NCBI GenBank assembly: GCA_022600605.1
Contig: JAHZKD010000133.1
Coordinates: forward strand, 1-42,414
Length of the DNA: 42,414 bases
Origin: Actinomycetes bacterium
GTDB lineage: Bacteria; Actinomycetota; Actinomycetes; Mycobacteriales; Mycobacteriaceae
Reading direction: 5' to 3'
Part shown: piece after piece, positions 115 through 29,800 of the stretch
Numbering within the stretch: the first letter of the stretch is position 1
Layout: the number at the start of each line of letters is the position of its first letter
Notes under the pieces: model-generated
What the model was told of the DNA's origin: nothing
What the model saw: only the letters and a program-made list of their open reading frames with translations
Databases searched by the model: none
Program-made: the position numbers and the translations under genes

Positions 115-140
115 GTGGAGCTAAGGGGACTCGAACCCCT
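115..140. repeat. Left attachment-site copy (attL): 26-bp duplicate of the tRNA-Ala 3' end
   Basis: gtggagctaaggggactcgaacccct at 115-140 is identical to 42065-42090, inside the intact tRNA-Ala. Confidence 0.9.
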
Positions 141-525
141 TGACCGGAAAGGCCCATAATAGCCACTGAGCTGCACAAACGCGCTGGGATGCCCTGGGAT
201 GCGAACGGGAAACGACATGAAACGACGCCACACGACCTGGGAGAACAGTGAGAGTTGTTGACGGCGTCAACACTCACCCATCCCATAACGATCTGTTCAT
301 GAGGAGACTCAATGGCCTCCCGGGCGGCCTGTCAGCCGAAGGAGATGGCCGAGGACCTCGGAACCATCAGCGAGGTCGCCGCTCTCCGACTGGCCGGGAT
401 CACAGGCCCCCAACATGACTGCCCGCCAATGGGAATCTGCCGCCGCCGCACTGTGAGGTCACAATTGCCCGCCGTCGCCGAGATCGTTAGCCTGCGTGGC
501 TCTCAGGGCCGTTTACCCTCATCTG

Positions 526-11067: not shown

Positions 11068-13380
11068 TTGATCACGACCAAAGAGTTCTTCCGCTGCCAC
11101 GAGGAAGCACTCGGGTTTCGTCCGGACCACGAGAAGTACGAGGCAATCACGGCAGATGCGGCCGACACCTTGTACTTGGTGGCTGGTCCAGGCACCGGCA
11201 AGACCGCCTGTCTGGCTGCGCGCCTGCTCAAACTCATGCTGGTAGACGGAATACCTCCCGACGGAATCGTCGCGACAACCTTCACGACCAAGGCAGCTAA
11301 CGAGTTACGTTCTCGAGTCCTCGATTGGGGATTCCGCATGACCGGCCACCTCGCCCGCGACGAGCGCCTCAGTAAGCGCAAGCGGAAGGCTGCGGAAGCA
11401 CTGGACGTCAACCAGGTCGTCACCGGCACGATCGACAGTCTGTGCCAGGACATGCTGGTGCGCTACCGCGAGTCCGGCACTGAGCCGCCGACAGTCGTCG
11501 ACGAGTTTGTCGCCAAGACCTTGCTGCTGCGTTACGGACTTTTTGAGGACGCTCGATACCGAAGCGAGCGTCTCAACGAACTCCTCATGCAACTCGATGC
11601 TCGGAAGAGCAAGTTCGGCTGGAACATCGGGAGCAAAACGGAGGTTCTCTCAGCGATCGCCGACCGGCTCGTCCATGACCGTGTGGATGCCCGGAAGTAT
11701 CTTGGGGTGCGCGATTCCGACGAAAATTACAAGCGCACCAAGCTGATTGACGCCGTGGGGTCATATGACACTCAACTCGACGAGCGCTTAATGTTGGATT
11801 ACGCCGGCCTGGAGTTAGAGGCACTGACGCGATTGGAGACAGGCCAACTCGCGACGTTTCTCGGCCGCGTACGCGCCGTTTTGGTCGATGAGTATCAGGA
11901 CACCAATCTCCTTCAGGAGCAGATCTACTTCGAACTCGCGAGGGCATGCGGTGGCGCATTGACCGTCGTCGGTGATGATGACCAGAGCCTCTATCGATTC
12001 CGGGGAGCAACAGTGGAGTTGTTCAGCGGATTCGCACAACGCGCCAGCCAAGAGGGGTGGAAGGCGAAACCCATCTTCCTCCAAACGAATTACCGCTCGA
12101 GCATGCAGATTGTCGGTTTCGTCGACAAGTACGCCCGTCTCGACCCCGGGTACCAAACGGTGCGCGCCAAAGACAAACCGCCACTGACGGCGCACGCCTC
12201 CGCGCCCGAGGGGCCGCCCGTGCTCGCCATGTTTCGTGACACCCCTGAAGAACTCGCCGAATCGCTGGCCGACCTGCTTCGAGACGTCTTCAAGGGCCGC
12301 GGGTTCCCAGTGCCAGACTTCGGGAAGATCCGCTGCCAACGCAGGGCCGGCGACGTCGGCGACGCAGCACTGCTTTGCGCAAGTCCGCGGGAACATCGAG
12401 GCAGTAAAACCCTACTGCCGGGTCTCCTGCGGGAAGCCCTGTCCGCCACTCCGCAGATCAACGTGTTCAACCCTCGTGGCCAGGCTTTCGAAGACATTCC
12501 CACGGTGGCCGTCCTGGGCGGCGGCCTCCTGTCTTGCCTCGACCCGGATAGGCGAATTGAGGCAGCGGTTTTCCTACGTCCCGAGATGCGCAGGACCTTT
12601 CAAACATGGCGACAGGCCTTCCAGGACTGCATCCAATTCCGCAAGGACGCCCGCCGAATTCTCACCGGGTGGAGGACTAGGGAACGCAATGTCGCGAAGT
12701 GGCCCAACCGCGTCTCTGCCCTTGAGTTGCTCTACTCGCTCGCCTCCTTCCTTCCGCAACTTCATGATGACCCCGAAGGGCAGGTCTACCTTGAGGTCTT
12801 CACCCGGCAGTTATCAGCCTGCGAGCAGGTCAGTTCCTTCGGGGGTCGAGTGCTAACCGATCCGGCCGGGGAACGGAACGCCAAAGGACTGAACCTGGCA
12901 GACCGCAGTGTCCGGGACCTGCTGCAGGACTTCCTCGGACCTATTGCTGCCGGTTCCACTGACGTCAACGAGGACCTGTTGGAGGACTTCCCGCGAGACC
13001 GGTTGCCGGTCTTGTCCATCCACCAGTCGAAAGGACTTGAGTTCCCGCTAACGATCGTCGACGTCGGGTCGTCGTTCAAGAGCAACCACCACGGCCACCG
13101 CTTCAAGAGGTATCCCGACTGGCCCACCTCGGCCCAAGCAATGGAAGACCATTTCCGGCGCTATACCCCACTGGGTGTGCCCCGCCGTGCCGACGTCGAT
13201 CGGGCATTCGATGACCTCTACCGTCAATACTTCGTCGCATTCAGTCGGGCACGGGACGTCTTGTTGCTGGTGGCACTGAACTCCGCTCGGCCAGACGGCA
13301 CGATTCCCAACGTGGCGGTGGGTTGGCGGCGTGACTGGAAATCGGTGTGGGCTACTGACCCGCCGTGGCTCGAGATTTAG
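11068..13380 (+). CDS. UvrD/Rep (PcrA)-like superfamily 1 DNA helicase
   Basis: Walker A LVAGPGTGKTACLAARLL, VDEYQDTNLLQ, VVGDDDQSLYRFRGA, NYRSS, LSIHQSKGLEFPLTIV, VAFSRARDVLLLV. Confidence 0.93.
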   Translation: MITTKEFFRCHEEALGFRPDHEKYEAITADAADTLYLVAGPGTGKTACLAARLLKLMLVDGIPPDGIVATTFTTKAANELRSRVLDWGFRMTGHLARDERLSKRKRKAAEALDVNQVVTGTIDSLCQDMLVRYRESGTEPPTVVDEFVAKTLLLRYGLFEDARYRSERLNELLMQLDARKSKFGWNIGSKTEVLSAIADRLVHDRVDARKYLGVRDSDENYKRTKLIDAVGSYDTQLDERLMLDYAGLELEALTRLETGQLATFLGRVRAVLVDEYQDTNLLQEQIYFELARACGGALTVVGDDDQSLYRFRGATVELFSGFAQRASQEGWKAKPIFLQTNYRSSMQIVGFVDKYARLDPGYQTVRAKDKPPLTAHASAPEGPPVLAMFRDTPEELAESLADLLRDVFKGRGFPVPDFGKIRCQRRAGDVGDAALLCASPREHRGSKTLLPGLLREALSATPQINVFNPRGQAFEDIPTVAVLGGGLLSCLDPDRRIEAAVFLRPEMRRTFQTWRQAFQDCIQFRKDARRILTGWRTRERNVAKWPNRVSALELLYSLASFLPQLHDDPEGQVYLEVFTRQLSACEQVSSFGGRVLTDPAGERNAKGLNLADRSVRDLLQDFLGPIAAGSTDVNEDLLEDFPRDRLPVLSIHQSKGLEFPLTIVDVGSSFKSNHHGHRFKRYPDWPTSAQAMEDHFRRYTPLGVPRRADVDRAFDDLYRQYFVAFSRARDVLLLVALNSARPDGTIPNVAVGWRRDWKSVWATDPPWLEI

Positions 13381-13389
13381 GTAATTCCA

Positions 13390-14538
13390 ATGGATTTGAG
13401 TGTCCGGAAACCGCCTTATGTAATCCCGTCCTACAGTCTTACTGGCGATCTCTTGAGCTTTATGCGCTGCGGCCTGCAGTACCGGTACGGCACCTTAGGT
13501 CGGCTGCCTGCTACCCGCCCGGTGCAGCTGTGGTTCGGGCAATTCATCCACGGCGTGCTCGAGGAAGCATTCCTTCGCTACCGCGCCAACGGCGAAGGCA
13601 GGGTTGTCGGCAACGAGGAACTCAACGAGATCCTCCACCTCGTGGCGCGTCGACTGGCGGCCAGCGGCCTTCGACCCCGAAACCGCAGCCTCGAAGAAAT
13701 CGGCCATGATCGAGCGCGCACTGCGGTTCGACAACTCGGCCCTGAACTGTTCCCGATCATCAGCCAGGCAGAGATCCCACTGAACGGCACGCGGCACATG
13801 CGACTCGATCGTTGGCCGAAGTCACTTCCGCGCCGAGAATCAGATCGATACGAGATGGCTGGCATCATCGATGTGATCACTGAGGTGGCGCTGGACGACC
13901 CTGCATTGCGGAGCAATCGTATCGTTTCGGCGATCTTGAGCGCACTCAACGAGCCACTGCCCGCCAAATTCGAGGTGATCGTCGACTACAAGGGGATGCG
14001 CAGACCACCCACGAGGACATCCCGCAAGGCTCCCGACTACTGGCGCATCTACGAGTGGCAACTTCAGACGTATGCAACGCTGCGATCTCTGCAGCCAGAT
14101 GCCAGACCGGTCGCGGCAGGAGTGCTGTTGTACCTCAACGAGTTGCGCCCGTCGGTGGGCGACATCGCCGCACTGAGGCGAGAACTTCGTAGCGGATTGA
14201 CCGACGTCGCTCCCCAGCCAGGCAGCAACGATGAGCAGTTCCTGAACAGTGAGAAGTCTCGGGGATTCGTCCCGGACCTGTCGTTCAACTTTCGCCTGAA
14301 GCGGGCGCTGCGGATCGTTCCAATCACCCACGAGTCCCAACAGGACGCCGCCGGGAACTTTGATGAGGTCGTTCTTGACATCGAAATCGCTCGGGCCAAG
14401 GAACGGCAATCGCCACACATCCGCCAACAGTGGCCAAGGAATCCGTTCGACGACGCCACTTGCGTAGCGTGCGACTGGCGGACAGTCTGTCCCGCACATC
14501 CCGATGTGACTACGGCACTTCCTACCGAGAGTGCATGA
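13390..14538 (+). CDS. PD-(D/E)XK (RecB/Cas4/AddB-like) nuclease with probable Fe-S cysteines
   Basis: N-terminal FMRCGLQYRYG, FGQFIHGVLEEAF, VIVDYKG, WQLQTYATLR, C-terminal CVACDWRTVCPAH. Confidence 0.85.
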   Translation: MDLSVRKPPYVIPSYSLTGDLLSFMRCGLQYRYGTLGRLPATRPVQLWFGQFIHGVLEEAFLRYRANGEGRVVGNEELNEILHLVARRLAASGLRPRNRSLEEIGHDRARTAVRQLGPELFPIISQAEIPLNGTRHMRLDRWPKSLPRRESDRYEMAGIIDVITEVALDDPALRSNRIVSAILSALNEPLPAKFEVIVDYKGMRRPPTRTSRKAPDYWRIYEWQLQTYATLRSLQPDARPVAAGVLLYLNELRPSVGDIAALRRELRSGLTDVAPQPGSNDEQFLNSEKSRGFVPDLSFNFRLKRALRIVPITHESQQDAAGNFDEVVLDIEIARAKERQSPHIRQQWPRNPFDDATCVACDWRTVCPAHPDVTTALPTESA

Positions 14539-14619
14539 CCCGGTTCGCGGATCGCCCCACCGATCGCGGGCTGCCCGTGTCGAGATGCAGGAAAGATTGA
14601 CGAGAAACGTCGAGCTGCT

Positions 14620-16701
14620 TTGACGAGAACCAGCCGTGTTGGGCTCTTCTCGGTACTTTTCTTCATAACGGTGAAGTGCTCGCCGACGCGGTTCAACGCA
14701 CCCTGCACGGGTGAGCGGGTATCTAGGGCCTGGCGCCTCGGCAGTTACAGGTATTCGACGGACTCGGCCTCGAAAGGCGGCTGGGTGTCATCCGCGGCTC
14801 ATGTCTGCGTCATCCCGGTCGAGCGATTCGAAGGACGCTTTCCGAATCGCACCGCACTGGTCCCGATTGGGGATCGTGGCGAACTGATCTGTGACCACCC
14901 CGAAATGATCGAACTGGCGCTGGAGGACTTACGCGCACGTGATGAAGACAAGCTCGATCCGGACCGTCCACTCGGGGAAACCTTCACACTTCAGCAGCTG
15001 CGATTCCTGCACGGATCAGTGGACGGCGAGACGAGTAGGACTCGGCGGCGTGCATTGCGGACACTAACTAAGCCTGCGAGCGATATGGACCAACGTGCCA
15101 CTCGCTCCCTGTTTCAATGGATACCCATGAGCGGGCACCTCTTTGTCCTACGGGGCGATCTGACGCACCTTCGCTGTAGCGCAGTCCTGGTTCCCTGCGA
15201 CAGCCGGTGGTTCGTTGTGTGGGACCACTGGTCTCAACTTCTTCCCGACGATCGCTTAGGGCCACGTAATGCCAGGGGTTGGAGGGCCCTGACCGATGGC
15301 GGCACGGGACGCTTCGCCGACCTGGTCACCGACGGCGACAAGTGGGTGCGCCTCGTCGTCACCGCCAGTACCGAAAGGTTCGACAGTCCCGAGGCGAGGG
15401 CAGGCTGGGTGTCACAGGGCGTCACTTCTGCGATCGCCGACCTGTCGACGCGCGGAGTTCCCCTGCCAGCCGGCCGCATAAAGCCGCTGATCGCTCTGCC
15501 GCTGGTCGGAACTGGAGCCGGCGGTTTTGAGACAACGCGGGGCGTACTCATTCATGAGCTACTCCCCGCGCTGATCAAGGCCGCACGCGAACACGATGTC
15601 GACATCGCGCTCGTGTTGATAGATCAACGCGACCACGCCGCCGTCCAGGCGGTACGAACAGACTACTGGGCCGAGTTCGCCGAAGAGCAACCTGAAATCG
15701 CTGAATACCTCGACATCGCCGACGAACTGGGACGCCGGGCTGCAGACGGAGAGCTATCACTGTTCCTGGGATCGGGGGTGAGCGTTCCCCTCGGCCTCCC
15801 GGACTGGAAAACCCTCCTTTCGAACATTTCCCCCTTCGCGATCGACTTTCAGGCCGAGACCCTGCAGCAGATCGCCAAGAACATCGAGCATGCAATCGGC
15901 AGAGACGAGTTGGAACAACGCATCGTGCGCAACGTAAGGGTCGATGGTGTGGCGCCAGCGCACCTGCTGCTGGCTGCTCTTGCGGTCCCCCAGGTCGTAA
16001 CGACCAACTACGACACCGCATACGAACGGGCACTCGAGACAACTGAAGGAAGAGGCAAATACCGTGTGCTCACAGGACAACTCGCCCTACAAGGGCACCC
16101 CTGGCTGTTGAAGTATCACGGCTGCATCAACCGCCCAGGGACCATCGTCATCACTACTACGGACTACGAGGAACTCAAGATTCACTACGGCGCGCTCCAG
16201 GCCGTCGTGGAATCGCTCATGATCACCAGCCATCTCATGTTCGTGGGTTTCAGCATGGAAGACGAAGAATTCGTCGACGCGGCGAGAAGAGTCAAAGTCG
16301 TGCGAGATCTCGCTGAAGACAGCAATTTATCCTCTGTGGCAACCGTTTTAGCTCTGCATCCACACGCCGTCTCCACGCTCGCGGGCTTCGATATCGTGCC
16401 CATGCTCAATGACCCAGATAGTCCTAAAGAGGCGGCGCGGCGGCTGGAGATATTCCTGGACCGCGTCTCGTGGAGAGCCACCACGAAAGGTCCGGCATCG
16501 AGCTCGTACTTGCTGCATCCCGACTACCAAGACCTCTTCGCCAAAGATGTCCCGACCAACAAATTCCGCGAACGACTGTTAGAACTGGCCAACGAACTAG
16601 AAACTGACTACGCCTTCTGTCACAGCAGTAGGGGGTGGAACCAGGTAACCGAACTCCTTGCCCAACTGGGGAGACGATCATCAGATCAGCGGTCGCCGTG
16701 A
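14620..16701 (+). CDS. Macro domain-SIR2 protein, with an in-frame upstream NUDIX-linker/winged-helix-like segment (true start possibly GTG 14785, ATG 15085 or ATG 15127)
   Basis: SIR2: LFLGSGVSVPLGLPDWKTLL, VVTTNYDTAYERAL, LLKYHGCI, LMFVGFSMEDEEF. Macro-like: LFVLRGDLTHLRCSAVLVPCDSR...IALPLVGTGAGGFETTRG...ALVLIDQRDHAAVQAVR. Upstream: LICDHPEMIELALEDLR...LGETFTLQQLRFLHGSVDGE. Confidence 0.8.
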   Translation: MTRTSRVGLFSVLFFITVKCSPTRFNAPCTGERVSRAWRLGSYRYSTDSASKGGWVSSAAHVCVIPVERFEGRFPNRTALVPIGDRGELICDHPEMIELALEDLRARDEDKLDPDRPLGETFTLQQLRFLHGSVDGETSRTRRRALRTLTKPASDMDQRATRSLFQWIPMSGHLFVLRGDLTHLRCSAVLVPCDSRWFVVWDHWSQLLPDDRLGPRNARGWRALTDGGTGRFADLVTDGDKWVRLVVTASTERFDSPEARAGWVSQGVTSAIADLSTRGVPLPAGRIKPLIALPLVGTGAGGFETTRGVLIHELLPALIKAAREHDVDIALVLIDQRDHAAVQAVRTDYWAEFAEEQPEIAEYLDIADELGRRAADGELSLFLGSGVSVPLGLPDWKTLLSNISPFAIDFQAETLQQIAKNIEHAIGRDELEQRIVRNVRVDGVAPAHLLLAALAVPQVVTTNYDTAYERALETTEGRGKYRVLTGQLALQGHPWLLKYHGCINRPGTIVITTTDYEELKIHYGALQAVVESLMITSHLMFVGFSMEDEEFVDAARRVKVVRDLAEDSNLSSVATVLALHPHAVSTLAGFDIVPMLNDPDSPKEAARRLEIFLDRVSWRATTKGPASSSYLLHPDYQDLFAKDVPTNKFRERLLELANELETDYAFCHSSRGWNQVTELLAQLGRRSSDQRSP

Positions 16702-17133: not shown

Positions 17134-17946
17134 TCATGACGGAGTCCACGACAGTCGTGCGACCGCGTCGTGGCTGTGGATACTTTCGATGTTGCGGGCT
17201 TCGACGCGGTGCGCGAGTTCGAGTGCTCGGCATTGCCCGGAGACGTCACGCAGCAGGTCCTCGACGAACATGGGTTTGTCGTAGGCGGCCATGGTGACGG
17301 CACGTTCGTCGGGTCTCTTCACGACCGGAAAGACCGGGCAGGAACTGTTTGCACGGATGATCTCGATCAGCGTCGACACGGGGACGGGATATGCCGCATC
17401 GCCGCTGCCCTGCACGGTGAGCGACACCCTGCTGCGCTGATTGTGGGCGCCGTAGTCGCTGATCGCCTTGCTGCAGGGGCACAGGGTCGTGACGTCGACC
17501 GACACTGTGGTCTCCAGCGTGTATGAGTCGTCCGACAAGTCGCCGCGCAAATGCACATCGTGGACTTGCCACGCTTCTTGACCTGACGTCGGTGCGGCCA
17601 CCCTGACGGCAACCGGCAATGCCGCCGAGACCCGCGCGGTGGACGCATCGAGCAGGTCGGCAAGGATCTTGAGCGCCGCGGCGAACTCCCGTGGGTTGAT
17701 CACCTGCAGGTGTGTATCGGCGGCCTGGACCATCCGGCTCATGTGGGTCCCGCGGCGGTCGGCCGGCAGTCCGACGGTGATCTCTAGGTCGGCGATGACC
17801 GACTGGGACAGTTCACCGTCGTCGAACACGACTGGATAGCGCAGACCTGAGATGCCGACCTCGTCAATCGGGATACCACGATCGTCGAGCTGGTTCTGAA
17901 TATCGAGAAGTTGGTCGCCCGCGGCTCCGTTCAGCGTGAGTGTCAT
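17134..17946 (-). CDS. folE2: GTP cyclohydrolase FolE2 (type IB)
   Basis: TTLCPCSKAISDYGAHNQRSRVSLTVQ, GISGLRYPV, HSHDAVA; start reset to the ATG at 17946 overlapping the queD stop. Confidence 0.9.
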   Translation of the reverse strand: MTLTLNGAAGDQLLDIQNQLDDRGIPIDEVGISGLRYPVVFDDGELSQSVIADLEITVGLPADRRGTHMSRMVQAADTHLQVINPREFAAALKILADLLDASTARVSAALPVAVRVAAPTSGQEAWQVHDVHLRGDLSDDSYTLETTVSVDVTTLCPCSKAISDYGAHNQRSRVSLTVQGSGDAAYPVPVSTLIEIIRANSSCPVFPVVKRPDERAVTMAAYDKPMFVEDLLRDVSGQCRALELAHRVEARNIESIHSHDAVARLSWTPS

Positions 17947-18326
17947 TGGTGCGTGCCACCGGGCCCGCGATACACGCACCCGGATGTGCAGGTCTCCGAC
18001 ACCCTGATCGCGGACATCATCGGCAAGGACGCGGTCAGTTCGCGCCACATCCACGCCGCCAGATTTTCGCTGGTGGGGTTCTCCAACCCGGGTACCTCGT
18101 TGAGGTAGTAGTGATCGAGTCGGGCGATGACCGGCTTGCAGGCGTCTTTGATGTGGCCGAAGTCGATGACCCAACCGGCTTGCGGGTCGACCGGTCCGGT
18201 CACGAACACCTGGGCCCGGTACGAATGGCCATGCAGCCGTGAGCACTTGTGATCACTGGGCACGTTCGGCAACCGGTGGGCGGCTTCGAAGGTGAACTCC
18301 CAGAAGATCTCTGCAGTTTCATTCAT
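17943..18326 (-). CDS. queD: 6-carboxytetrahydropterin synthase QueD
   Basis: FTFEAAHRLPNVPSDHKCSRLHGHSYRAQVFV, WVIDFGHIK, LDHYYLNEVPGLENPTSENLA, VSETCTSGCVY. Confidence 0.93.
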   Translation of the reverse strand: MNETAEIFWEFTFEAAHRLPNVPSDHKCSRLHGHSYRAQVFVTGPVDPQAGWVIDFGHIKDACKPVIARLDHYYLNEVPGLENPTSENLAAWMWRELTASLPMMSAIRVSETCTSGCVYRGPGGTHQ

Positions 18327-18958
18327 GCGATTCCTAAGTATTTGTGGGTTTGCAGACTTAGCCGCCATCTGGGCCGTTTGAGGCAGTATTCGACTGCGGC
18401 GGCGGTGTTTTCCCTCACTGCCGGGCCGTCCATCGGCGAGAGCCGGAACGATTTGAAGTTCAACTGCTCGAACTGCGCCGGATCGCCGCCGTCCTGGGGA
18501 TACACGAGTTTCAACTCATCACCGGACGTGAGGACCAGGGGTGCGCCGATTTTGGGGCTCACGCATGTCCAGTCGATCCCGGGCGGTGGGGGACGGGTGC
18601 CGTTGGTCTCCACCGCAATGTAGAAGCCCTCAGCGTGCAGGGCGTCGACCAGTGCGGTGTCGAGTTGCAGTAGGGGTTCTCCCCCGGTGCACACCACCAT
18701 TCGGTCCTCGTGGCCGGTCTCGGGCCACGCGCGTGCCACCGCGGCCGCGAGGGCGTCGGCGTCGCGAAAGTGTCCCCCGCCTGGGCCGTTGGTCCCGACG
18801 AAGTCTGTGTCGCAGAATTTGCAGATCGCTCGTTCGCGATCACTTTCGCGGCCGTTCCACAGGTTGCAACTCGCGAACCGGCAGAACACTGCCGGGCGTC
18901 CGGTATGGAATCCCTCGCCCTGCAGGGTGTAGAAGATTTCCTTGACCGTGTAGGTCAT
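18323..18958 (-). CDS. queE: 7-carboxy-7-deazaguanine synthase QueE (radical SAM)
   Basis: FYTLQGEGFHTGRPAVFCRFASCNLWNGRESDRERAICKFCDTDFVG, CTGGEPLLQLD, AVETNGT. Confidence 0.94.
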   Translation of the reverse strand: MTYTVKEIFYTLQGEGFHTGRPAVFCRFASCNLWNGRESDRERAICKFCDTDFVGTNGPGGGHFRDADALAAAVARAWPETGHEDRMVVCTGGEPLLQLDTALVDALHAEGFYIAVETNGTRPPPPGIDWTCVSPKIGAPLVLTSGDELKLVYPQDGGDPAQFEQLNFKSFRLSPMDGPAVRENTAAAVEYCLKRPRWRLSLQTHKYLGIA

Positions 18959-19689: not shown

Positions 19690-19738
19690 GTAACCGAAAC
19701 TACACCAGACAGCCGACACAGTTTGGGCGTAGTTTTAC
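19690..19738. promoter_or_regulatory. Putative divergent operator: imperfect inverted repeat between queC and the dpdA operon
   Basis: GTAACCGAAACTAC (19690-19703) versus GTAGTTTTAC (19729-19738); AAACTAC/GTAGTTT core is a perfect 7-bp inverted repeat. Confidence 0.4.
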
Positions 19739-19758
19739 GGCACCGAGAGGAGGATGAC

Positions 19759-20643
19759 TTGCCGAAACTGACGATCGTAGTGAACTGCACCGACAGAAAG
19801 TCGATGCAACCTGCGGCGAACCTGCGGCTGGGTTCCCTCCCCCGCGGCGACAACCAGGCACGTTTTGAGGTGTGGCGTCGGCGTGTTGATCAGGCAGACG
19901 CACAAGTCAGGCTCGTCGACCTCTATCAGGGAGAGGCTTGGCAGGAAGTCCGGGGGCTGTCCAACGATGCGCGACACGCCGGCTACTCCGTCACGACCCT
20001 GGTCGCCTCGGCGGGCCTTGGCCTGCGCGATGTTTCGACACTGGCGAGCCCTTACGCCGCGACCTTCGCCGGCGGCCACCCCGACTCGGTCGCCTCCAGC
20101 GCCGAGGACAACCGCGACTGGTGGCGCCGCCTGAGCGGTCTCAAGTTCGCGCAGTCTTTGACTGACAGTGCTGACCGGGTGCTGCTGGTCCTGTCCGAGA
20201 CCTACGCCCGCAGCTTGGAGCACGATCTGATCGCCCTGGCCGATCGCGGAGGCGACCTCCTGCTGGTGGGTGGCGCCCGCGACATCGACGGGCTACCGCG
20301 ACTTCCCGCCAACCGCTCCCTGCGCGCCGAACTGGGCGGTACCACCTCCAGTGTCAGCCTGCGTATGGCGCGGCGCTGGCTTCGTTGTCGCACCAGCACC
20401 GCCCTCCATACCGCCAGGGACGCGTCCGCGTGGTCGGATTGGGCGCAATCGGTGGCCCGATCCGAGATCTACCACCGAGCGCCGATGACGGATGCCGAGA
20501 TCGGCCAGTGCATCAATAAGCTCTGCGCCGATGAGCCCAACCTTTCGGCGACCCGCGCCCTACGCCGGGTCCGCGATGCCGGTATTGCCTGCGAGCAGAA
20601 GCGGTTTGGCCGGATTTTTCATTCAGTGATGGACCCGCGATGA
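19759..20643 (+). CDS. YaaA/DUF6884-like protein, first gene of the dpdA operon (candidate DpdC-role or accessory protein)
   Basis: TTG start after [26 protein letters not shown]...[52 protein letters not shown] resembles YaaA/DUF6884; 4-bp overlap with the next gene. Confidence 0.65.
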
Positions 20644-21785
20644 CCGACGGCCAACCCGAACGCATCCTTGAACGGCGGGCACTGCGGATCGAGCAGAACT
20701 CAGACATGCCGTTATACCTGTTCGCTCTGGCCGCCGACGAAGTCGCCTTAGTCGCCGACGTGGCCCGCATCTCCCGCGATGAAGCCGGCAAACTGATCGG
20801 CTACCAACGGCCTGAGCGACGCAACCATGTGAAACAGATCCTCGACTACCTCAACTCCGGGGACGTGCTGTTTCCCAATGGACTGATCCTCGCACTCCCC
20901 GACAACGTGCGGTTCCGGTCCAGTCGCGGCCCGACCACCACCGATGGCCTGGCCACGGCCGGCACCCTCGAGATCCCACTCCCCGCCGGTGACGACGAGC
21001 CACGACCGGCGTGGATCGTCGATGGTCAGCAACGCAGCCTGGCCCTGGCCCGCACCAAGAACACACGCCTGGCGGTCCCGGTGGCCGGCTTCGTCGCACC
21101 AACCTTGGAAATGCAACGCGACCAGTTCCTCCGGGTGAACACCGTCGCGCCACTGCCGTCGAACCTCGTCACCGAACTTCTCCCCGAAGTGATCACAGCG
21201 CCCTCGCCACGGTTATCGCAACGCCGAATGCCCTCTGCACTGGTCGACATGCTCAACCGCGAACCCGACTCCCCATTTTTCGGGTTGATCAAGCGGGCCT
21301 CAACGGACGCCGAGGATCGTCGACAAAGCGTCATCACCGACACCAGTCTTGTTGAGGCGCTGAAGGAATCACTTGAATCACCGTCGGGAGTGCTGTTTCC
21401 CTACCGCAATATGGCCACAGGGTCTACTGATACCGACGGCATCCGGCATGTGCTGTTGCTGTACTGGAACGCGGTGCGCGAGCTGTTTCCCGACGCATGG
21501 GGCAAGCCGGCCACCCAGTCCAAACTCATGGGCGGCGTCGGCATCCGGGCGATGAGTCGCCTGATGGATCGGGTCATGGTCCACGTGGATGTCACCTCCC
21601 CCCGCGCACCAGCTCAGACCAAGAAGGAACTCTCCCGCATCGTTGCGAAATGTCACTGGACTAGTGGCACCTGGGAGGAACTCGGCTTGCCGTGGAACGA
21701 AATGCAGAACGTCTCCAAGCACATCTCCGCGTTATCCAACTACTTGGCGCGGGTTTATGTGGCTGCCCGCAAGGAGCAGCCATGA
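20640..21785 (+). CDS. dpdB: DpdB-like DGQ(H/Q)R-domain protein, copy 1
   Basis: WIVDGQQRSLALA; FLRVNTVAPLPSNLVTELLPE; immediately upstream of dpdA with an ATGA overlap. Confidence 0.82.
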   Translation: MTDGQPERILERRALRIEQNSDMPLYLFALAADEVALVADVARISRDEAGKLIGYQRPERRNHVKQILDYLNSGDVLFPNGLILALPDNVRFRSSRGPTTTDGLATAGTLEIPLPAGDDEPRPAWIVDGQQRSLALARTKNTRLAVPVAGFVAPTLEMQRDQFLRVNTVAPLPSNLVTELLPEVITAPSPRLSQRRMPSALVDMLNREPDSPFFGLIKRASTDAEDRRQSVITDTSLVEALKESLESPSGVLFPYRNMATGSTDTDGIRHVLLLYWNAVRELFPDAWGKPATQSKLMGGVGIRAMSRLMDRVMVHVDVTSPRAPAQTKKELSRIVAKCHWTSGTWEELGLPWNEMQNVSKHISALSNYLARVYVAARKEQP

Positions 21786-23029
21786 AGTTCTACTTCCCCG
21801 ACAGCCAAGACCAAGTCAGCCCAACCTATGACTTCATCCACGACGAGCACTCGCCGCTTCGGGTTCGCCAACGCGACGACCGCTACGCCCACGAGGTGCT
21901 CACCGCGCCCGCCTACGATGGGATCCTGGTTTCCAAAGCAATCGTCGATGGCTCCATCCGGGGCGTCGGGAAATATTCGATGCCCCAACGACAGCGCCTC
22001 TACCGCTTGGGTGTGCGCGGCTTCTTCCGCCTACCCCACGACGTCGAAACACTCGGCGACTGCGGGGCCTTCACCTACATCAACGAACCCGAACCGCCCT
22101 ACACCGTAGATGAGGTCATCGACTTCTACCAGCAGTGCGGATTCGACGCTGGCGTCAGCATCGATCACATCGTCCTCGGATACCACCGGCCCGGCAGAAG
22201 TTCCGAACCACCCGAAGAGTGGAAGCAACGACGCCGAATTTCGCTGGCCTACGCTGAGAAATTTCTGGCGGCCGTTACCGAACAACAAGCGAACTTCGAA
22301 CCGATCGGAGCCGCACAGGGCTGGGATCCAGAAAGCTACGCCGACAGCGTGCGTGAACTTCAGAACATGGGCTACACCCGCATCGCACTCGGGGGCATGG
22401 TCCCCCTCAAAACGCCCGACATCATGGCGTGCCTCGCCGAAATCGCGACAATCCGTTCCGAAGGAACAAGTCTGCACCTTCTCGGGATCACCCGCCTGGA
22501 CTCGATCCAAGCCTTCGAAAGTTTCGGGGTGACAAGTTTTGACAGCACCTCATCGTTCCGGCAGGCATTCATGGACGAACGCGACAACTACCACACCGCG
22601 TCCACCACGTTCGCCGCGATCCGCGTCCCCCAAGTAGACGGCAACGTCGCACTCAAACGGGCCATTCTCGCCGGAACCGTGTCCCAGAGCGAGGCCCTGG
22701 CCGCCGAACGGCGCAGCCTCAAACTCCTGCGTGAATTCGATGCCGGACGCTGCGCCTTGGATGACGCCCTCGATGCTGTCATCGACTACGAAGACATCGT
22801 CGGAGTAAAGAAAAGTTACATCGACCAGTACCGCCGGACACTGCAAGCAACTCCGTGGCGAGACTGCACTTGCGGACTCTGCGCCAAGCACGGCATCGAG
22901 ATGGTGATCTTCCGCGGCAGCGAACGGAACAAACGGCGAGGCTTCCACAATCTGTCGGTGCTCGCCGCGAAAATGAAAGCACTGCGCGACTTGGACGCGG
23001 TGCCCCTTGAAAGGACGGCGTGTGGCTGA
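21782..23029 (+). CDS. dpdA: DpdA, TGT-like DNA 7-deazaguanine transglycosylase
   Basis: TGT-like barrel pieces (GVSIDHIVLGYHRPG, YTRIALGGMVPLKT, LHLLGITRLDSIQAFESFGVTSFDSTSSFRQAF) and zinc site CTCGLCAKHG...RGFHNL. Confidence 0.92.
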   Translation: MKFYFPDSQDQVSPTYDFIHDEHSPLRVRQRDDRYAHEVLTAPAYDGILVSKAIVDGSIRGVGKYSMPQRQRLYRLGVRGFFRLPHDVETLGDCGAFTYINEPEPPYTVDEVIDFYQQCGFDAGVSIDHIVLGYHRPGRSSEPPEEWKQRRRISLAYAEKFLAAVTEQQANFEPIGAAQGWDPESYADSVRELQNMGYTRIALGGMVPLKTPDIMACLAEIATIRSEGTSLHLLGITRLDSIQAFESFGVTSFDSTSSFRQAFMDERDNYHTASTTFAAIRVPQVDGNVALKRAILAGTVSQSEALAAERRSLKLLREFDAGRCALDDALDAVIDYEDIVGVKKSYIDQYRRTLQATPWRDCTCGLCAKHGIEMVIFRGSERNKRRGFHNLSVLAAKMKALRDLDAVPLERTACG

Positions 23030-24116
23030 CAGGTATGACATCAGGGTGCCGGCACTGGAGGTCCTCCAGGGGGCGCGTCGGATCTACTGCTTCGCGATCG
23101 ACGGCAAGCACCTCCTGGACTTCACCGCGGTCTCGCGCGTCAAACGTTCCGGAGATGGTGAGTTGGATGGCTATCAGCGCCCCGAGGTGCTCAGCCACAT
23201 CAGGGCGATACGTCGGTACGTCGAGTCGCCGGATGCTTTCGTACCCAATGCTGTTGTTCTCGCATTTGATTCACGCGTCCGATTCGAAGCCAAACGTCAC
23301 AAGCGCACCGTCGAATACTCCACCATGGGCGAATTGATCATCCCCGTCGACGAGACCCTGGAGGATGCAGCTAAGCCAGCTCTCCTGGTCGACGGACAGC
23401 AACGGGTCGCCGCGATCAGGGACGCCGATGTCGCCGAATTCCCAGTGGCCGCGGTCGCTTTCATCGCCTCAGACGCCGAGGAACAACGCTCGCAGTTCAT
23501 CCTGGTCAACAACACCAAACCGCTGCCCAAGGGCCTCATCCATGAGCTGCTGCCAGGGGCCACAGGCTACCTGCCGCCCAAATACGCCCGCCGGCAACTA
23601 CCCGCGCAAATCATGACCCGCCTCAACCTCGACTCTGACAGCCCTTTCCGCGGCGCCATTGCAACCCCGACCTCGCCCGACGGCTACATCAAAGACAACA
23701 GCGTATTGAAGATGATCGAGAACAGCCTGTACGACGGCGCTCTCTACCAGTACCGAAACCCCGAGGACGGGTCCGGCGACATTGAGCAGATGGTGCTGCA
23801 CCTCAAGATCTTCTGGAGCCTGGTGGAGTGCACCTGGCCCATCGAATGGAAACTCATACCGCGAAAGTCGCGACTGACCCATGGCGTCGGCATCCAGGCC
23901 CTCGGGTACATCATGGACTCCCTTACCGAAGGCCACCACGCAGACGCGTTGCCCAAAATAACGCTAGACCGTCGACTCGAGTCGCTCTGCGAGGTCACAG
24001 CCTGGGCCAGTGGGACCTGGGACCTCGGACCCGGCGATCAGCGGCGTTGGAACGGCCTGCAGAACACACCCAACGACGTCAAGCTCTTGACGAACGTACT
24101 TCTCAGAGCGCTGTGA
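23022..24116 (+). CDS. dpdB: DpdB-like DGQ(H/Q)R-domain protein, copy 2
   Basis: LLVDGQQRVAAI; FILVNNTKPLPKGLIHELLPG; clearly related to the 20640-21785 product; GTG at 23022 likely. Confidence 0.8.
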   Translation: MADRYDIRVPALEVLQGARRIYCFAIDGKHLLDFTAVSRVKRSGDGELDGYQRPEVLSHIRAIRRYVESPDAFVPNAVVLAFDSRVRFEAKRHKRTVEYSTMGELIIPVDETLEDAAKPALLVDGQQRVAAIRDADVAEFPVAAVAFIASDAEEQRSQFILVNNTKPLPKGLIHELLPGATGYLPPKYARRQLPAQIMTRLNLDSDSPFRGAIATPTSPDGYIKDNSVLKMIENSLYDGALYQYRNPEDGSGDIEQMVLHLKIFWSLVECTWPIEWKLIPRKSRLTHGVGIQALGYIMDSLTEGHHADALPKITLDRRLESLCEVTAWASGTWDLGPGDQRRWNGLQNTPNDVKLLTNVLLRAL

Positions 24117-24184: not shown

Positions 24185-26302
24185 TCACACGACGACGTCG
24201 TACACCACGTCCCTGGCCGTGTCCGGGCCTGTTTTGATCGCGTCCATCGCCGCCCGCAGCAGCGACGCCGAGCCGCCCCCGTTTGCCTCGACGATAATCG
24301 CGCGCTTGTTGGCATGCTGTCTGATGAACCCGGTGGCGGCATGTTTCGCGCATCGGATGGCGAGAACGATGTAATCGGCGCGGCGTGACCAGTCCCTAAG
24401 TTGCGAGTTACCGACACGGTCATGACTCGACCGGACATTCAGGCCAGGAGCGACTTCGGCCAGAGCGCTTCGCACCCGACTCAGAATGGCCTCGTCGAGA
24501 GAGTATAGAAGCAGATTCCCTTCGATACGCTGTGGTGTCGATTGCACGCCTACTGGCGGATCCCAAACCAATCCAAGTTCAAGCTCCTGGTCGAGACTGC
24601 GCGCCATTCTGAGCTCATCAGAGCCGATTCGCGCACGTTGTCGACTCAACGGTTCCAGAAGACGAGTTGTCAGACGCAGTCTGGCTTCTGGATCAGGTGC
24701 TGCATAGCGCGCCAACATGTCCACTAAATCCAACTCCACCGATGAGCGTTCGATGCTCACCCAACGGTCTATGTCCGCGCTGAGGTCGTCGACTAATCGA
24801 GCGTAGTCACCGTCCGCGGGCGCGGAGCGTAAGACGATATCGGTGAGAGCGACCAGACCGGCTAGGTCAGCCGGACGGAACTTGCCCTGCAGCAGAGCGA
24901 TGTCGATTAGCGCCTGGGCAGCTTTAGGGGCCGGAATGCCGAAGTCGTCGGCGTCGATAAATGGTCCGGCCAGCGACCACACTCGACTGGCTGACGAGTC
25001 ATCCAGGTCTGCTATGACCGCCGCAATCTCCTCGTCGTCGGTTGACGGTGCCGGCCAGCCTCTCCACTGCTCGTTAGCAAGCAAGTCGCAAACATCGACA
25101 CCCGCCCCGATGGCACTGAAGAGCTGCGCCCATGACACTGGTTGAGCGGCTTGCTCCTTCGTGGTAACGCCCGGCTCGGACGAGCCTAGAGCTTCAGACG
25201 ACAATGTGGGTTGCGGCGCGAGTTCTGCTTCTAGCGGCGTCGCTGGCTCAGCCGCATTCCCGTCTGCCGCAGGTATCTCGGCGATAGGTTCCTCAACCCG
25301 AACTGATGCATCGTGTGAGCCCGCAGGTTGCTCCTCGACCTCTCGCACGACCGTCCCGGCTACGTCTACTCTCAGTTCGGCAAGCATTTCGACAACACCG
25401 GGCACCCGCACCAGTTGGTCGCCGAGTCCGTCACCCTGACGGACCACCGCGGCGATCGCGAGCACCTTTAGAGACTTGGGCCCGAAGCCTGCATAAGGCT
25501 TAGTTACCAGTGGCGGGACTAAATCACCGCGGTCCAGCAACGCCTCTTTGGCGGCTTCGATGTCGCCCGCATCCAACGGCGACTCGACCAGTTGGTAGTA
25601 GATCGCGGCCAGAATCGCGTCCTTCACCGGACCCGGAGGATTGCTGTGAGCTACAGATTTCAAGCCGGGTAGGCGAAGCAATTCGCCATAACTGCCAAGG
25701 CGGGCGAGACGTTTGATCAGAAGGTTGGTGTAATTGCTCCCGCTCAATCCGTTTCCGGATAGTCGGTCTAGCAACGCCGCCGACGCCGCGCTCTGACCAG
25801 CAGCTAGTGCTAGGTCGAATTCGGCCAGCAGACGGGACAGAGGAAGTGGAGCAATCCCGACACCGATCGGCTTGCGGCCAACGGCCTCAATAAGTCGTTG
25901 CAACGCTGCCCATAGGCTGGCACCTGTCTCCGTTCGAACATCGAGCAACAGAATGCCACGGTGTCCGACAAATTCCACCAGCGCTGCCTCGATCGGATCA
26001 TTAAGATCCAACGTGCGTGCGCTGTACGGTGCGTAGCTTGGCACAACAAAGGCATCAACCCATTCCCGCACCGCCATTGCCTGATCGCCCGACCGTGGAA
26101 CGACATATATTAGGCGGTCCTCCTGGCCTGGTCCCAGGCGCGGAAGGATATACGGCGCTTCGGAATCCGTTGACATCGACTCCAGGAAGGGACGCAGTCG
26201 CTCCCCTGTCTGAGACTGGAAGTTGCGGTCCCAGTACCTGTTATGCGGAAGGCCGAAAAACCTGTCCAGAAATCCATCCAAGTCCTTGGTCGCTACTCCC
26301 AC
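24185..26302 (-). CDS. dpdD: DpdD
   Basis: 705-aa protein at the end of the dpdE-K operon; C-terminus ADYIVLAIRCAKHAATGFIRQHANKRAIIVEANGGGSASLLRA resembles DUF2325; assignment mainly by position and size. Confidence 0.7.
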   Translation of the reverse strand: MGVATKDLDGFLDRFFGLPHNRYWDRNFQSQTGERLRPFLESMSTDSEAPYILPRLGPGQEDRLIYVVPRSGDQAMAVREWVDAFVVPSYAPYSARTLDLNDPIEAALVEFVGHRGILLLDVRTETGASLWAALQRLIEAVGRKPIGVGIAPLPLSRLLAEFDLALAAGQSAASAALLDRLSGNGLSGSNYTNLLIKRLARLGSYGELLRLPGLKSVAHSNPPGPVKDAILAAIYYQLVESPLDAGDIEAAKEALLDRGDLVPPLVTKPYAGFGPKSLKVLAIAAVVRQGDGLGDQLVRVPGVVEMLAELRVDVAGTVVREVEEQPAGSHDASVRVEEPIAEIPAADGNAAEPATPLEAELAPQPTLSSEALGSSEPGVTTKEQAAQPVSWAQLFSAIGAGVDVCDLLANEQWRGWPAPSTDDEEIAAVIADLDDSSASRVWSLAGPFIDADDFGIPAPKAAQALIDIALLQGKFRPADLAGLVALTDIVLRSAPADGDYARLVDDLSADIDRWVSIERSSVELDLVDMLARYAAPDPEARLRLTTRLLEPLSRQRARIGSDELRMARSLDQELELGLVWDPPVGVQSTPQRIEGNLLLYSLDEAILSRVRSALAEVAPGLNVRSSHDRVGNSQLRDWSRRADYIVLAIRCAKHAATGFIRQHANKRAIIVEANGGGSASLLRAAMDAIKTGPDTARDVVYDVVV

Positions 26303-26817
26303 GGTTGGCCGCCGAAACGCTGGGTAAATTCGACTCTGGTCAGTGCAGCGGCGGTCCGATCGAGCAGGTATCGGCTTCGTTCGTCGTTCTTATGCATGCC
26401 CTGGTAGGTGTAGTTCATCGATCCGGTGATCTGCCAGTCATCTCCGCATAAGGTCTTTTCGTGGTAGATGGTTTCATCACGAATGACCCTCAGGTTCGCC
26501 GGATCCACCTGTCGCTGCAGGTGGTCCAGAAAGCGCACGCTTTTGCCGGGCCGGGTAATCACCCGCAGCCTCGTCCCAGCCTTCGTCAGAAGCCCCAAGA
26601 CCTCGGCGAACAGATAGGAACGGTTCAGTGGGTCGTTGAATGCCGCGTCGTAGGCGCCACCGGTGTTATCGATCACCTCGATATCCGATATCCAAGGCGA
26701 CATCAACCAGAGGTCCTCGCTGGGAGTCAACAATTCGGACAGCAGCACATCGGATAACAGATGATCGATCTTGACTCCGGTGGCCTGACCGGTCCGTTGA
26801 TCTCTTTCGCGAATCAT
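26293..26817 (-). CDS. dpdK: DpdK, phospholipase D-like domain protein
   Basis: LWLMSPWISD, YHEKTLCGDDWQITGSMNYTYQGM (PLD HxK..GSxN motif). Confidence 0.85.
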   Translation of the reverse strand: MIRERDQRTGQATGVKIDHLLSDVLLSELLTPSEDLWLMSPWISDIEVIDNTGGAYDAAFNDPLNRSYLFAEVLGLLTKAGTRLRVITRPGKSVRFLDHLQRQVDPANLRVIRDETIYHEKTLCGDDWQITGSMNYTYQGMHKNDERSRYLLDRTAAALTRVEFTQRFGGQPWE

Positions 26818-29800
26818 CCTGCTGCCTCGGTTAATTCGACAATTGCATTGATCTCACCGGCACTCCGAGCTAGCTTGGCGACGGTTCCGTGCAATCGTAG
26901 GACGTCGCGGTCAACAGCGATCGCCGGAACCTCGCGGAGCGCACGTGTGAATTGCCGCAGGTTGTCCACTGACGCTGACAATCGGACTCGGGCATGGGCA
27001 GTGATTTCCCGGACGTAGTTTTCCGCCCAGACGGGGTGGGTAACGTCGATGACCGGCAACTGCTCGTCGTGGGCGGCGCGGACCAGCAGTGGGTCCAGTC
27101 GTGGGTTCGGACTGTACGGCTGGTAATGCTTCAGATGTTGAATGCGAGCTTCGCTGCCACGCGGCATCAAAATGCTGTAGATCTGGTCCGGATTGAAGTC
27201 CAGTTCTGCGAGCCCCGGAACTTCGATCGCGCCGGCCCCGGCCAGGTAGGCCAGAATTCCGCTGTCGACCTCGAAACCCAGCTGTTCTTCAAGATCGTCC
27301 CAGGCCTGGTTGAGTTCGAGGGCAACCTTGTCGGTGTCCTGACTAGATCCCGGTCGCAGGTAACGTGACGATAATGCGGCCACGGCCCTGTGCCTCGGGG
27401 GCGCGTCAATGTGCGCCCAGGCACGACGCAACTCGTGCAACGCCGCATCAGCCTCTGCAACGGAGGCCGGCGACCGAAGCCGGGCTACCGCTTGCGCTGC
27501 AACCGATTGCGGATTGTCGACGATATGGGCGAGAAGACGACTGACGGTATCACGAACATATTCCTGTTCACTGTCGTCGAGCACGCCGTCGACGAGGTGC
27601 CAGAAACAACTTGGGTCGGTGGCGTAATAATCCACAAACTTGGTTAGGATGCCCAAGCCGCCAAGTGCTGTCTCCGTCAACCACACTTTAGCGCTTCCAG
27701 TACCGTCGGGATCCACGACATCAACGATCAAATCTGTGTCCTGGGCATCGGGGCTGGAGCGTTGGGCCGCAGCCCGGATTGCGGCCGCGACGGTGTCGCG
27801 ATAGGTTCTCTGCGCCAACACGATCGACCCCGGCACGACGTCGTCTGACCACAGCAGGCCAGCATTGCGATCAACCGCTTCAACGACGTTAGCGTCATCA
27901 GCCAAGGCAGTTAAGGTACTAACGAGTCGGGCCGGACTGTTGGAACTATCATCACGATAGATGGCGTTCAGGACACTATCGATGCTGTCAGCCCACGCTC
28001 CCCCGCTCAACTCTTCGCCTACCTGTTCGTTTGTCTTGGTTGGGTTTTCAACTCGCTTGAGCGCAAACGCGGTGGTATACACGAGAGCAAGCCAGCGCCG
28101 CTGGAATGCATTGGCGCGGTGTTCCAACTCTGGGTCATCCTGCAGTGCCGCGTTGAAGGCGAATCCCCGCCATTGCGGTGAGCGCAGATAGTTCTTCACT
28201 CCCGGCGCAGTAGTGTCGAGCGCCAACAGTTGAAACCGCACCCCGTCGACACTTAGCGAGAAGCCGAGTGCTACCGACTCGCCGCCTCTTGCGTAGCTGA
28301 CCGACAACTCTCGGTCGGGCGTGGCGCCACCTTTCGTCTTGATTGTGCAGTCAGCGCCATCGGTCAGACGACGAACCACAACGGGATTTCCGATCCCGCC
28401 AGTGCCGAACCCCATTGCCGGAATACGGCGATGCCAGGGGCTCGATCTTGGTACGTCGGTGTCGGTGAGCGGTTCGCTATCGACGAACTGGGATTTCCAC
28501 CGAGCGACACCCTGTGACTGGTCGGCGATCTCCGGTGGAGGCTGATGCAGTTGGATGGCCAGCGGGCGCAGCACTCGGATCGGTGAGCCGCCATCCGGCG
28601 TCCATTCACCTTCATCAGCGTAGTCATCGAGGAACACCGAAACGTTCAGGGGTTCGTGCTCCCCGGCGGGGAGAGGAAGCCAGGTACGCTGGTCGGATTG
28701 GTTGTATCCGTAGCGCAGGCTGACCTTCCCGGGGACGGCCTCGCGCAGCGCAATCTCGACGCGGCGGGCCGGGTCGTCGTCGAGGAAATCGACATTGAAA
28801 GTTACTTCCGGAACATTCAAACCGTCGAACAAGGTCCGCGTCAGGAACTCCGGCAACAAGGACTTCGGCCGCGCTCCGGCGTCCTTTCCATATACCGCCC
28901 AACGTCGATCAAGTCTCCGCACAATAGTTGGTGCCACTGCAAGCAATATGGAACGCGGCGAGCCCCAAAGCGCTGCGTCCGCTTCCTCGGCGCTGATCTG
29001 CAGGCAGGAACACAGATAGGAGCGGAGGTCAGCCCGAAGTGCATCATCAGTCGCCAGGCTGCTGAGAAGCGCCGTCAAAGCTCTCTCGTCCGCCTGGGCG
29101 GGTTGTTGACCCCCTTCTTTTGGCGCGGCGACGATGGCGCGAGCATCAAGGCCGGTCCTTCGCGACAACCAGACCAGTAATGCCTGTGCCGCCTGTATTT
29201 TCAAGACGAACCGGTTTCCAACTGGCAGGCGCCGAGCCGGAAGCTCGGGCGCGAACAAGGTGTCGTAGGACTGATAGGTCAATCGGTCGCGCCCATAATC
29301 CGTCAATGTCACGACAGTCCATGGCCGGGTACCGCGGCGACGACCCGCGCGGCCGCGTCGCTGGACGAACGACGCTGAGTCGCGAGGAGCCTTATGCTGT
29401 AGCACCAGCCCCACCCGGTCATCATCGAACCCCACCTCAAGAGAGGCAGTCGCTACCACCAGATCCGAATCTTGGGATACCCCGCCGGACTGCGAGGAGG
29501 TCAGCGAGACCCTCAGTCCGCCGGCGCGCGCCGCCGGATCGAGCAGGCGGCCGATGTCTTGCACCAAGTCCCAGGACTGCCCGTCGATGAAGCGTTCGGG
29601 CCGATAGGGCGCGTCGATCGACCTAAGGCCAGCTAGCACCGGCATTCGCCCTCGCTTGCCTTCGGCCTCGGTCAGATCATGAAATAGTCGGTTGGTGACG
29701 TCGAGGTCGTCGGTGAACAGGAAGCCGCGCGAACCGAAGACATCTTCCTGTCTCGGCAGATCCAGTACACGGCCGAACAACATGGCTGTCTGGATGGTGG

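What the first reader, a model, noticed from the sequence alone, without database searches (positions are those of the whole stretch)
11068..16701. Candidate defence module: UvrD-like helicase + Fe-S PD-(D/E)XK nuclease + macro-SIR2 protein
Three same-strand genes follow one another closely. The helicase and the four-Cys nuclease resemble a split AddAB/RecB-type pair; the third combines a macro-like ADP-ribose-binding module with a SIR2 domain retaining GSGxS, TTNYD and YHG motifs. SIR2 NADases are established abortive-infection effectors (Thoeris, DSR, SPARSA), and macro domains occur in ThsA proteins. I do not recognise this exact triad as a named system. Inference: helicase/nuclease senses or processes phage DNA and macro-SIR2 depletes NAD+.
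Basis: partly seen in the sequence, partly recalled or inferred. Interest (0 to 1): 0.7.

Follow-up and report, generated by a model that had tools for sequence, protein, structure and literature searches.

The report
Helicase-nuclease partner of 7-deazaguanine DNA modification
Two of the three genes flagged, a DNA helicase and a DNA-cutting nuclease, form a tightly linked pair that travels across bacteria and archaea with the genes that put an unusual base (7-deazaguanine) into DNA; they are probably a nuclease arm of that self-marking defence, while the third gene is an unrelated neighbour.

Summary
The three ORFs are real, but the triad is not a unit. The helicase (Hel, 11068-13380) and the Fe-S PD-(D/E)XK nuclease (Nuc, 13390-14538) are a true pair: Hel lies directly upstream of Nuc in 84 of 85 related loci (median gap 10 bp; the exception is a contig end), and the two are fused in a haloarchaeon. 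The macro-SIR2 gene is near none of the 85. Hel-Nuc is linked to Dpd far beyond this island: DpdA-family genes lie nearby in 41 of 52 non-Methanobrevibacter loci, and 7 of the 11 other genomes carry DpdA elsewhere. All 5 plasmids with Nuc are among only 26 of 72,556 with DpdA. Of 28 Hel-Nuc genomes tested, 23 lack DpdE and DpdH of the canonical restriction operon. In a Mycolicibacterium island Hel-Nuc is co-inherited with the modification genes while DpdD-K were swapped. Best reading: an AddAB-like, exchangeable restriction effector of Dpd-type systems, absent from PADLOC and from the papers I could read. The association is strong; restriction activity is inferred.

The parts
11068..13380 (+). 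Hel: UvrD/AddA-like SF1A helicase, 770 aa (TTG start; the M. arenosum orthologue starts at the same place with GTG)
   Evidence: Pfam; alignments; AF2 pLDDT 90, Foldseek best E to UvrD and highest query TM to AddA
13390..14538 (+). Nuc: AddB/Cas4-like Fe-S PD-(D/E)XK nuclease, 382 aa, 9 nt after Hel
   Evidence: Pfam; alignments; AF2 pLDDT 86, Foldseek top AddB (3u44_B, 4cej_B), then Cas4-family ACE1
14671..15100 (+). remnant: C-terminal half of a NUDIX/NrtR-wHTH gene, in frame with the SIR2 ORF (not a functional part)
   Evidence: same-genus genes match aa 3-105 of the query; full NUDIX-NrtR gene in L012
15127..16701 (+). macro-SIR2 protein; separate defence-like cargo, not part of the Hel-Nuc/Dpd unit
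   Evidence: absent from all 85 Hel-Nuc loci
17134..17991 (-). FolE2 (preQ0 pathway); ORF opens to 18246, start placed by the M. arenosum orthologue
   Evidence: PF02649 E 2e-72
17943..18368 (-). QueD
   Evidence: PF01242
18323..18958 (-). QueE-like radical SAM
   Evidence: PF04055; 83% to the M. arenosum orthologue; 62-64% to proteobacterial QueE of L019/L020, annotated 7-carboxy-7-deazaguanine synthase in L020
18960..19721 (-). QueC (start placed by orthologue)
   Evidence: PF06508 E 3e-78
19735..20643 (+). DpdC (start placed by orthologue)
   Evidence: PADLOC E 3e-104
20640..21785 (+). DpdB
   Evidence: PADLOC E 4e-143
21782..23029 (+). DpdA, TGT-like DNA transglycosylase (start placed by orthologue)
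   Evidence: PADLOC E 9e-187
23007..24116 (+). second DpdB
   Evidence: PADLOC E 2e-146
24185..26302 (-). DpdD
   Evidence: PADLOC E 3e-177
26293..26817 (-). DpdK (PLD nuclease)
   Evidence: PADLOC E 5e-49
26814..31223 (-). DpdJ (YprA-family helicase)
   Evidence: PADLOC 1552 bits
31210..31893 (-). unassigned gene in the DpdI position
   Evidence: position only; no family match
31890..34943 (-). DpdH
   Evidence: PADLOC 1045 bits
34940..35950 (-). DpdG
   Evidence: PADLOC E 4e-9
35868..38429 (-). DpdF
   Evidence: PADLOC E 3e-259
38398..41613 (-). DpdE (SNF2 helicase)
   Evidence: PADLOC 1162 bits
42063..42138 (-). tRNA-Ala(GGC), likely island attachment site
   Evidence: ARAGORN, Rfam
115..145 (.). 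31-bp direct repeat of the tRNA-Ala 3' end (other copy 42065-42094): likely island ends
   Evidence: blastn; sequence

Best explanation
Hel and Nuc form one two-subunit, AddAB-like ATP-driven helicase-nuclease. It is an exchangeable effector module of Dpd-type systems. DpdA, with DpdB and DpdC and preQ0 from FolE2/QueDEC, swaps guanines of the host DNA for 7-deazaguanine derivatives, which marks self. Hel-Nuc loads on foreign, unmarked DNA, probably at ends or breaks, unwinds it and degrades it, either beside the canonical DpdD-K restriction operon (here) or in its place (most relatives). Shown here: pair conservation, intact catalytic residues, AddAB-like folds, linkage to DpdA across phyla, absence of DpdE and DpdH from most Hel-Nuc genomes tested. 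Inferred: that the two proteins bind each other, that they attack unmodified DNA, and that the mark blocks them. The macro-SIR2 gene is a separate passenger of the same island.
For: Pair: Hel directly upstream of Nuc in 84 of 85 loci, median gap 10 bp (with for six loci whose Nuc ORF opens further upstream); distance matrices correlate r = 0.94; fused in Natronococcus CG52 (1073 aa). Linkage to Dpd: a DpdA-family gene in 41 of 52 non-Methanobrevibacter loci (42 of 53 sequences with the window; 38 of 85 loci with a DpdA HMM), and DpdA elsewhere in 7 of 11 further genomes, against 2 of 397 Actinomycetota. On plasmids 5 of 5 Nuc records have DpdA against 26 of 72,556 overall (hypergeometric about 4e-18, or about 4e-11 for the 3 full-length matches; records not fully independent). 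DpdA sits a median 2.4 kb away, in many loci as DpdA-Hel-Nuc or Hel-Nuc-DpdA. Nuc-DpdA distances correlate (Mantel r 0.46-0.59, p 2e-4). Effector role: DpdE (over 250 bits) and DpdH found in the same 5 of 28 Hel-Nuc genomes; the 3 bacterial Hel-Nuc plasmids have no DpdJ match. Mosaic: against M. arenosum, Hel/Nuc are 73/70% identical like the modification genes (DpdA 72, DpdB 81, QueC 80%), whereas DpdE-K are 26-38%. Fold: Nuc like AddB, Hel like UvrD/AddA.
Against: Methanobrevibacter and kin (35 of the 85 loci; with L045 one clade in the tree) have Hel-Nuc without DpdA (0 of 11 of these genomes tested, and none in L045's), in housekeeping context beside a YprA/MrfA-like helicase (27 of 29 loci), so the pair can work without this mark. 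No restriction activity or DNA modification is measured. In the window DpdD-K is complete, so Hel-Nuc may be redundant or accessory there. Some Dpd islands have neither (Sinorhizobium CCGM7 within 15 kb).
Confidence: 0.58

Rival explanations
1. Hel-Nuc serves the modification side: it repairs or processes breaks and intermediates that base exchange by DpdA, or attack by DpdK/DpdJ, leaves in host DNA, protecting the host instead of attacking invaders.
For: It is co-inherited with the synthesis genes, not with DpdD-K, in the Mycobacteriaceae pair; DpdA and Hel-Nuc adjoin in many minimal loci; AddAB-type enzymes are repair enzymes (established knowledge).
Against: Many DpdA records have no Hel-Nuc (21 of 26 DpdA plasmids; no phage record has Nuc), so modification does not need it; 23 of 28 Hel-Nuc genomes, which lack DpdE and DpdH, would then have no evident Dpd effector.
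Confidence: 0.2
2. An autonomous AddAB-like defence or repair pair that only happens to share islands with Dpd.
For: Methanobrevibacter and kin keep it without DpdA beside a housekeeping-type helicase.
Against: DpdA is linked in nearly every other lineage although DpdA is rare; it is specifically DpdA, within a median 2.4 kb; the DpdA-less Methanobacteriales are one clade nested among DpdA-linked rows (midpoint root).
Confidence: 0.15
3. One reading: helicase/nuclease senses phage DNA and macro-SIR2 depletes NAD+.
For: The three ORFs are adjacent here; SIR2 residues are conserved.
Against: SIR2 in 0 of 85 Hel-Nuc loci, not in the M. arenosum island; about 590-bp gap with a gene remnant between.
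Confidence: 0.04

Closest known systems
Dpd (7-deazapurine in DNA) islands, dpdA-K (PMC11888242, PMC6884629)
   Same: DpdA, two DpdB, DpdC, preQ0 genes and nearly all of DpdD-K are in the window
   Different: Hel-Nuc is not among dpdA-K; in most Hel-Nuc genomes tested DpdE and DpdH are missing
AddAB / AdnAB / RecBCD
   Same: UvrD-family motor plus Fe-S PD-(D/E)XK nuclease; Nuc best matches AddB, Hel matches AddA and UvrD
   Different: compact and split otherwise: 770-aa helicase without nuclease, 382-aa nuclease without helicase-like domains; linked to DpdA; also fused (Natronococcus)
Gabija (GajAB)
   Same: UvrD-family helicase; GajB models are the top PADLOC hits of Hel (about 115 bits, shared family)
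   Different: no GajA (ATPase-TOPRIM); partner is a PD-(D/E)XK nuclease
BRIGADE (Dpd-like systems of haloarchaea, PMC12458937)
   Same: 7-deazaguanine genes with, at times, a PD-(D/E)XK nuclease instead of PLD; Halobaculum L103 has a distant Hel-Nuc
   Different: BRIGADE usually has two YprA-like helicases and was found only in haloarchaea; the bacterial Hel-Nuc loci here mostly show no DpdJ
Thoeris ThsA / DSR / KomC (for the SIR2 gene)
   Same: SIR2 domain of the defence NADase kind
   Different: macro instead of SLOG domain, no TIR partner seen, not part of Hel-Nuc

Membership tests
Dpd system (the island) | DpdA transglycosylase with DpdB | tested here: met
   PADLOC E 9e-187, 4e-143, 2e-146
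Dpd system (the island) | DpdC and preQ0 synthesis | tested here: met
Dpd system (the island) | restriction operon dpdD-K | tested here: met
   D, E, F, G, H, J, K found; DpdI position held by an unmatched ORF
Dpd system (the island) | dPreQ0/dADG present in DNA and restriction of unmodified DNA | not testable with these tools
   needs LC-MS/MS and transformation assays
Hel-Nuc as a Dpd component | conserved linkage to DpdA in independent lineages | tested here: met
Hel-Nuc as a Dpd component | named in a Dpd or other PADLOC model | tested here: not met
   Nuc: Cas4 only, weakly; Hel: general UvrD/GajB models
AddAB | AddA with C-terminal nuclease, AddB with helicase-like domain plus nuclease | tested here: not met
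   lengths, domains and structure models; works like, not a member
Gabija | GajA partner | tested here: not met
   no GajA hit among neighbours scanned
Thoeris (SIR2 gene) | ThsA SIR2 domain | tested here: met
   ThsA1 model E 2e-26 over 372-559
Thoeris (SIR2 gene) | ThsB TIR partner nearby | tested here: not met
   no TIR among the neighbouring ORFs scanned
BRIGADE | two YprA-like helicases with Dpd-like genes, haloarchaea | tested here: not met
   one DpdJ, mycobacterial window

The most novel reading that the evidence does not exclude
DpdA (with or without DpdB/C) plus Hel-Nuc is a self-sufficient, minimal restriction-modification class based on 7-deazaguanine, as few as three genes (DpdA-Hel-Nuc), spread over many bacterial and archaeal phyla, in which an AddAB-like processive nuclease replaces the whole DpdD-K operon.
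Probability: 0.35. Interest if true: 0.8.

Novelty: new variant of a known kind. Interest (0 to 1): 0.62.

Why it matters
Dpd islands that lack dpdD-K have looked like modification without restriction. Hel-Nuc gives many of them a candidate nuclease and makes the question testable: does 7-deazaguanine mark self against an AddAB-like enzyme? It would also show that a repair-type helicase-nuclease was recruited as an effector whose specificity comes from a hypermodified base, and would give annotation tools a new two-gene marker.

Tried and rejected
Triad as a unit: rejected. Thoeris/Gabija membership: rejected on missing partners. Chance neighbourhood for Hel-Nuc and Dpd: rejected by plasmid and genome counts. 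SIR2 structure: not folded; viral scans gave no relatives for an allowed alignment, so the macro call rests on the profile match and motifs. Empty integration site: the left flank (114 bp) was not found beside the tRNA in relatives, so the island ends rest on the 31-bp repeat alone. Key older papers (Thiaville 2016, Iyer 2013, Gedara 2023) are not held; an earlier mention of this pair there cannot be excluded.
Full report
What is in the window. The window is one whole contig (G000:C253) of a metagenome-assembled genome; its nearest relative places it in Mycobacteriaceae. The three ORFs exist as described. Hel is a UvrD-family helicase and Nuc a PDDEXK_1 nuclease; the third has a SIR2_2 domain with best PADLOC hits to ThsA, Dsr2 and related SIR2 proteins. 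A profile of the third protein's relatives also hits macroH2A1.1 (E 5e-8), besides ThsA, DSR2 and KomC, so a macro domain is real. Its start is probably ATG 15127: relatives L015/L016 have a start next to that point, and the in-frame stretch before it matches the C-terminal half of NUDIX/NrtR genes of the same genus, without a Nudix box.

The missing context. PADLOC and Pfam identify a complete Dpd island immediately to the right: FolE2, QueD, QueE, QueC, DpdC, DpdB, DpdA, a second DpdB, DpdD, DpdK, DpdJ, an unassigned ORF at the DpdI position, DpdH, DpdG, DpdF, DpdE. A tRNA-Ala(GGC) lies at 42063-42138, and a 31-bp direct repeat of its 3' end at 115-145. The simplest reading is a 41.9-kb integrated element carrying Dpd, Hel-Nuc and macro-SIR2. 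Only a weak integrase remnant was seen (7600-8283, E 0.026).

Is the triad conserved? No. Nuc is absent from 396 other Actinomycetota but full-length relatives (41-49%) occur on a cyanobacterial and two rhizobial plasmids, each with Hel directly upstream and a dpdA on the same plasmid. One scan of 84,980 prokaryote genomes and one of viral contigs gave 82 loci, 85 with the plasmids. Hel precedes Nuc in 84, median gap 10 bp; the exception (L027) is at a contig end. SIR2 is in none. SIR2 relatives sit without Hel, Nuc or Dpd.

Linkage to Dpd. Of 52 loci outside Methanobrevibacter and its close kin (two distant haloarchaeal plasmids included), 41 have a DpdA/TGT-family gene nearby (42 of 53 sequences with the window); a DpdA HMM finds it in 38 of 85 loci. 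Of the other 11, seven genomes have DpdA elsewhere or just beyond the fetched stretch, four do not (L027, L031, L032, L045). Base rates are low: 2 of 397 Actinomycetota, 26 of 72,556 plasmids, and all five plasmids with Nuc are among those 26. By my own arithmetic the hypergeometric probability is about 4e-18 (about 4e-11 for the three full-length matches), though records are not independent. Arrangements differ: DpdC-DpdB-DpdA-DpdB-QueE-QueD-QueC next to Hel-Nuc in Proteobacteria; DpdA directly before Hel-Nuc in Poribacteria, Planctomycetota and Desulfobacterales; Hel-Nuc-DpdA in archaea; and a group with NurA-like, ATP-binding, DEAD-helicase and a second short TGT gene. A changing neighbourhood with a constant DpdA argues for a functional link.

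Does it replace DpdD-K? In 28 Hel-Nuc genomes, DpdE (over 250 bits) and DpdH occur in the same five only. The three bacterial plasmids with Hel-Nuc have no DpdJ match. The nearest relative, Mycolicibacterium arenosum, has Hel-Nuc and a complete Dpd island: Hel 73%, Nuc 70%, DpdA 72%, DpdB 81/82%, QueC 80%, QueE 83%, but DpdE-K only 26-38% identical. Hel-Nuc thus moved with the modification genes while the restriction genes were exchanged. Nuc-Hel distances correlate at r 0.94, Nuc-DpdA at 0.59 (0.46 without near-duplicates; Mantel p 2e-4).

Structure and mechanism. Nuc (AF2 pLDDT 86) matches AddB of AddAB best, then Cas4-family ACE1. Hel (pLDDT 90) matches UvrD by E-value and AddA by query TM-score. 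In Natronococcus the two are one 1073-aa protein. This supports one helicase-nuclease machine. That it degrades unmodified DNA is inference from the Dpd link and the missing DpdD-K genes.

The exception. Methanobrevibacter and close kin carry Hel-Nuc without DpdA (0 of 11 genomes tested), beside a YprA/MrfA-like helicase (27 of 29 loci). In the Nuc tree they are one clade, with L045, nested among DpdA-linked archaeal rows (midpoint root, so gain or loss is not decided). The pair can therefore have another role there.

Literature. GATOR-GC describes dpdA-C plus dpdD-K and notes islands without the restriction operon (PMC11888242). BRIGADE in haloarchaea at times has a PD-(D/E)xK nuclease in place of PLD (PMC12458937). 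A BREX survey describes HerA-TGT systems (PMC12839542). The passages read mention no UvrD-plus-nuclease pair linked to Dpd, and term searches found none. Core older papers are not held.

Limits. The scan's seed alignment was the window and three DpdA-linked plasmids, and only the best 80 of 139 relatives were kept, so the linkage is measured for relatives of about 34% identity or more. Many loci are on short contigs, and absence of DpdE/DpdH in draft genomes can be an assembly gap. The MAG is 88% complete with 7% contamination and holds a second, 87% identical tRNA-Ala flank, so the contig may belong to a close relative of the named bin.

Noticed in passing
17134-41613: Complete Dpd 7-deazaguanine DNA modification and restriction island, not noted in the finding.
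   Followed up: yes
115-145 and 42065-42094; tRNA 42063-42138: 31-bp direct repeat of the tRNA-Ala(GGC) 3' end: likely ends of a 42-kb integrated element.
   Followed up: partly
9738-10079 and 14671-15100 (+): Two C-terminal remnants of NUDIX/NrtR-wHTH genes on either side of Hel-Nuc.
   Followed up: partly
7600-8283 (+): Weak match to the C-terminal part of a tyrosine integrase (E 0.026), possibly a decayed integrase.
   Followed up: no
5374-7122 (-): TM0106-like RecB/RNase-H-fold nuclease; a TM0106-family nuclease is also on the Picosynechococcus Hel-Nuc plasmid (L018).
   Followed up: no
L018, L022, L023, L025, L026, L028, L029, L084: Hel-Nuc loci sharing a DEAD helicase (about 800 aa), most also NurA-like and ATP-binding proteins, and a second short TGT-like gene: maybe a distinct Dpd-like class.
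   Followed up: partly
L054-L100 (Methanobrevibacter loci): Hel-Nuc without DpdA, divergent from a YprA/MrfA-like helicase in 27 of 29 loci: role unknown.
   Followed up: partly
L101, L102: Two IMG/VR contigs carry Hel-Nuc with a DpdA-family gene; L102 is ordered DpdA-Hel-Nuc and is followed by a 947-aa gene not identified here.
   Followed up: no
G000:C228:6219-6567: Second tRNA-Ala flank, 87% identical to the window's: possible strain mixture in the MAG.
   Followed up: no
31210-31893 (-): 227-aa ORF at the DpdI position without any family match; an ORF of similar size lies at the same place in M. arenosum.
   Followed up: no
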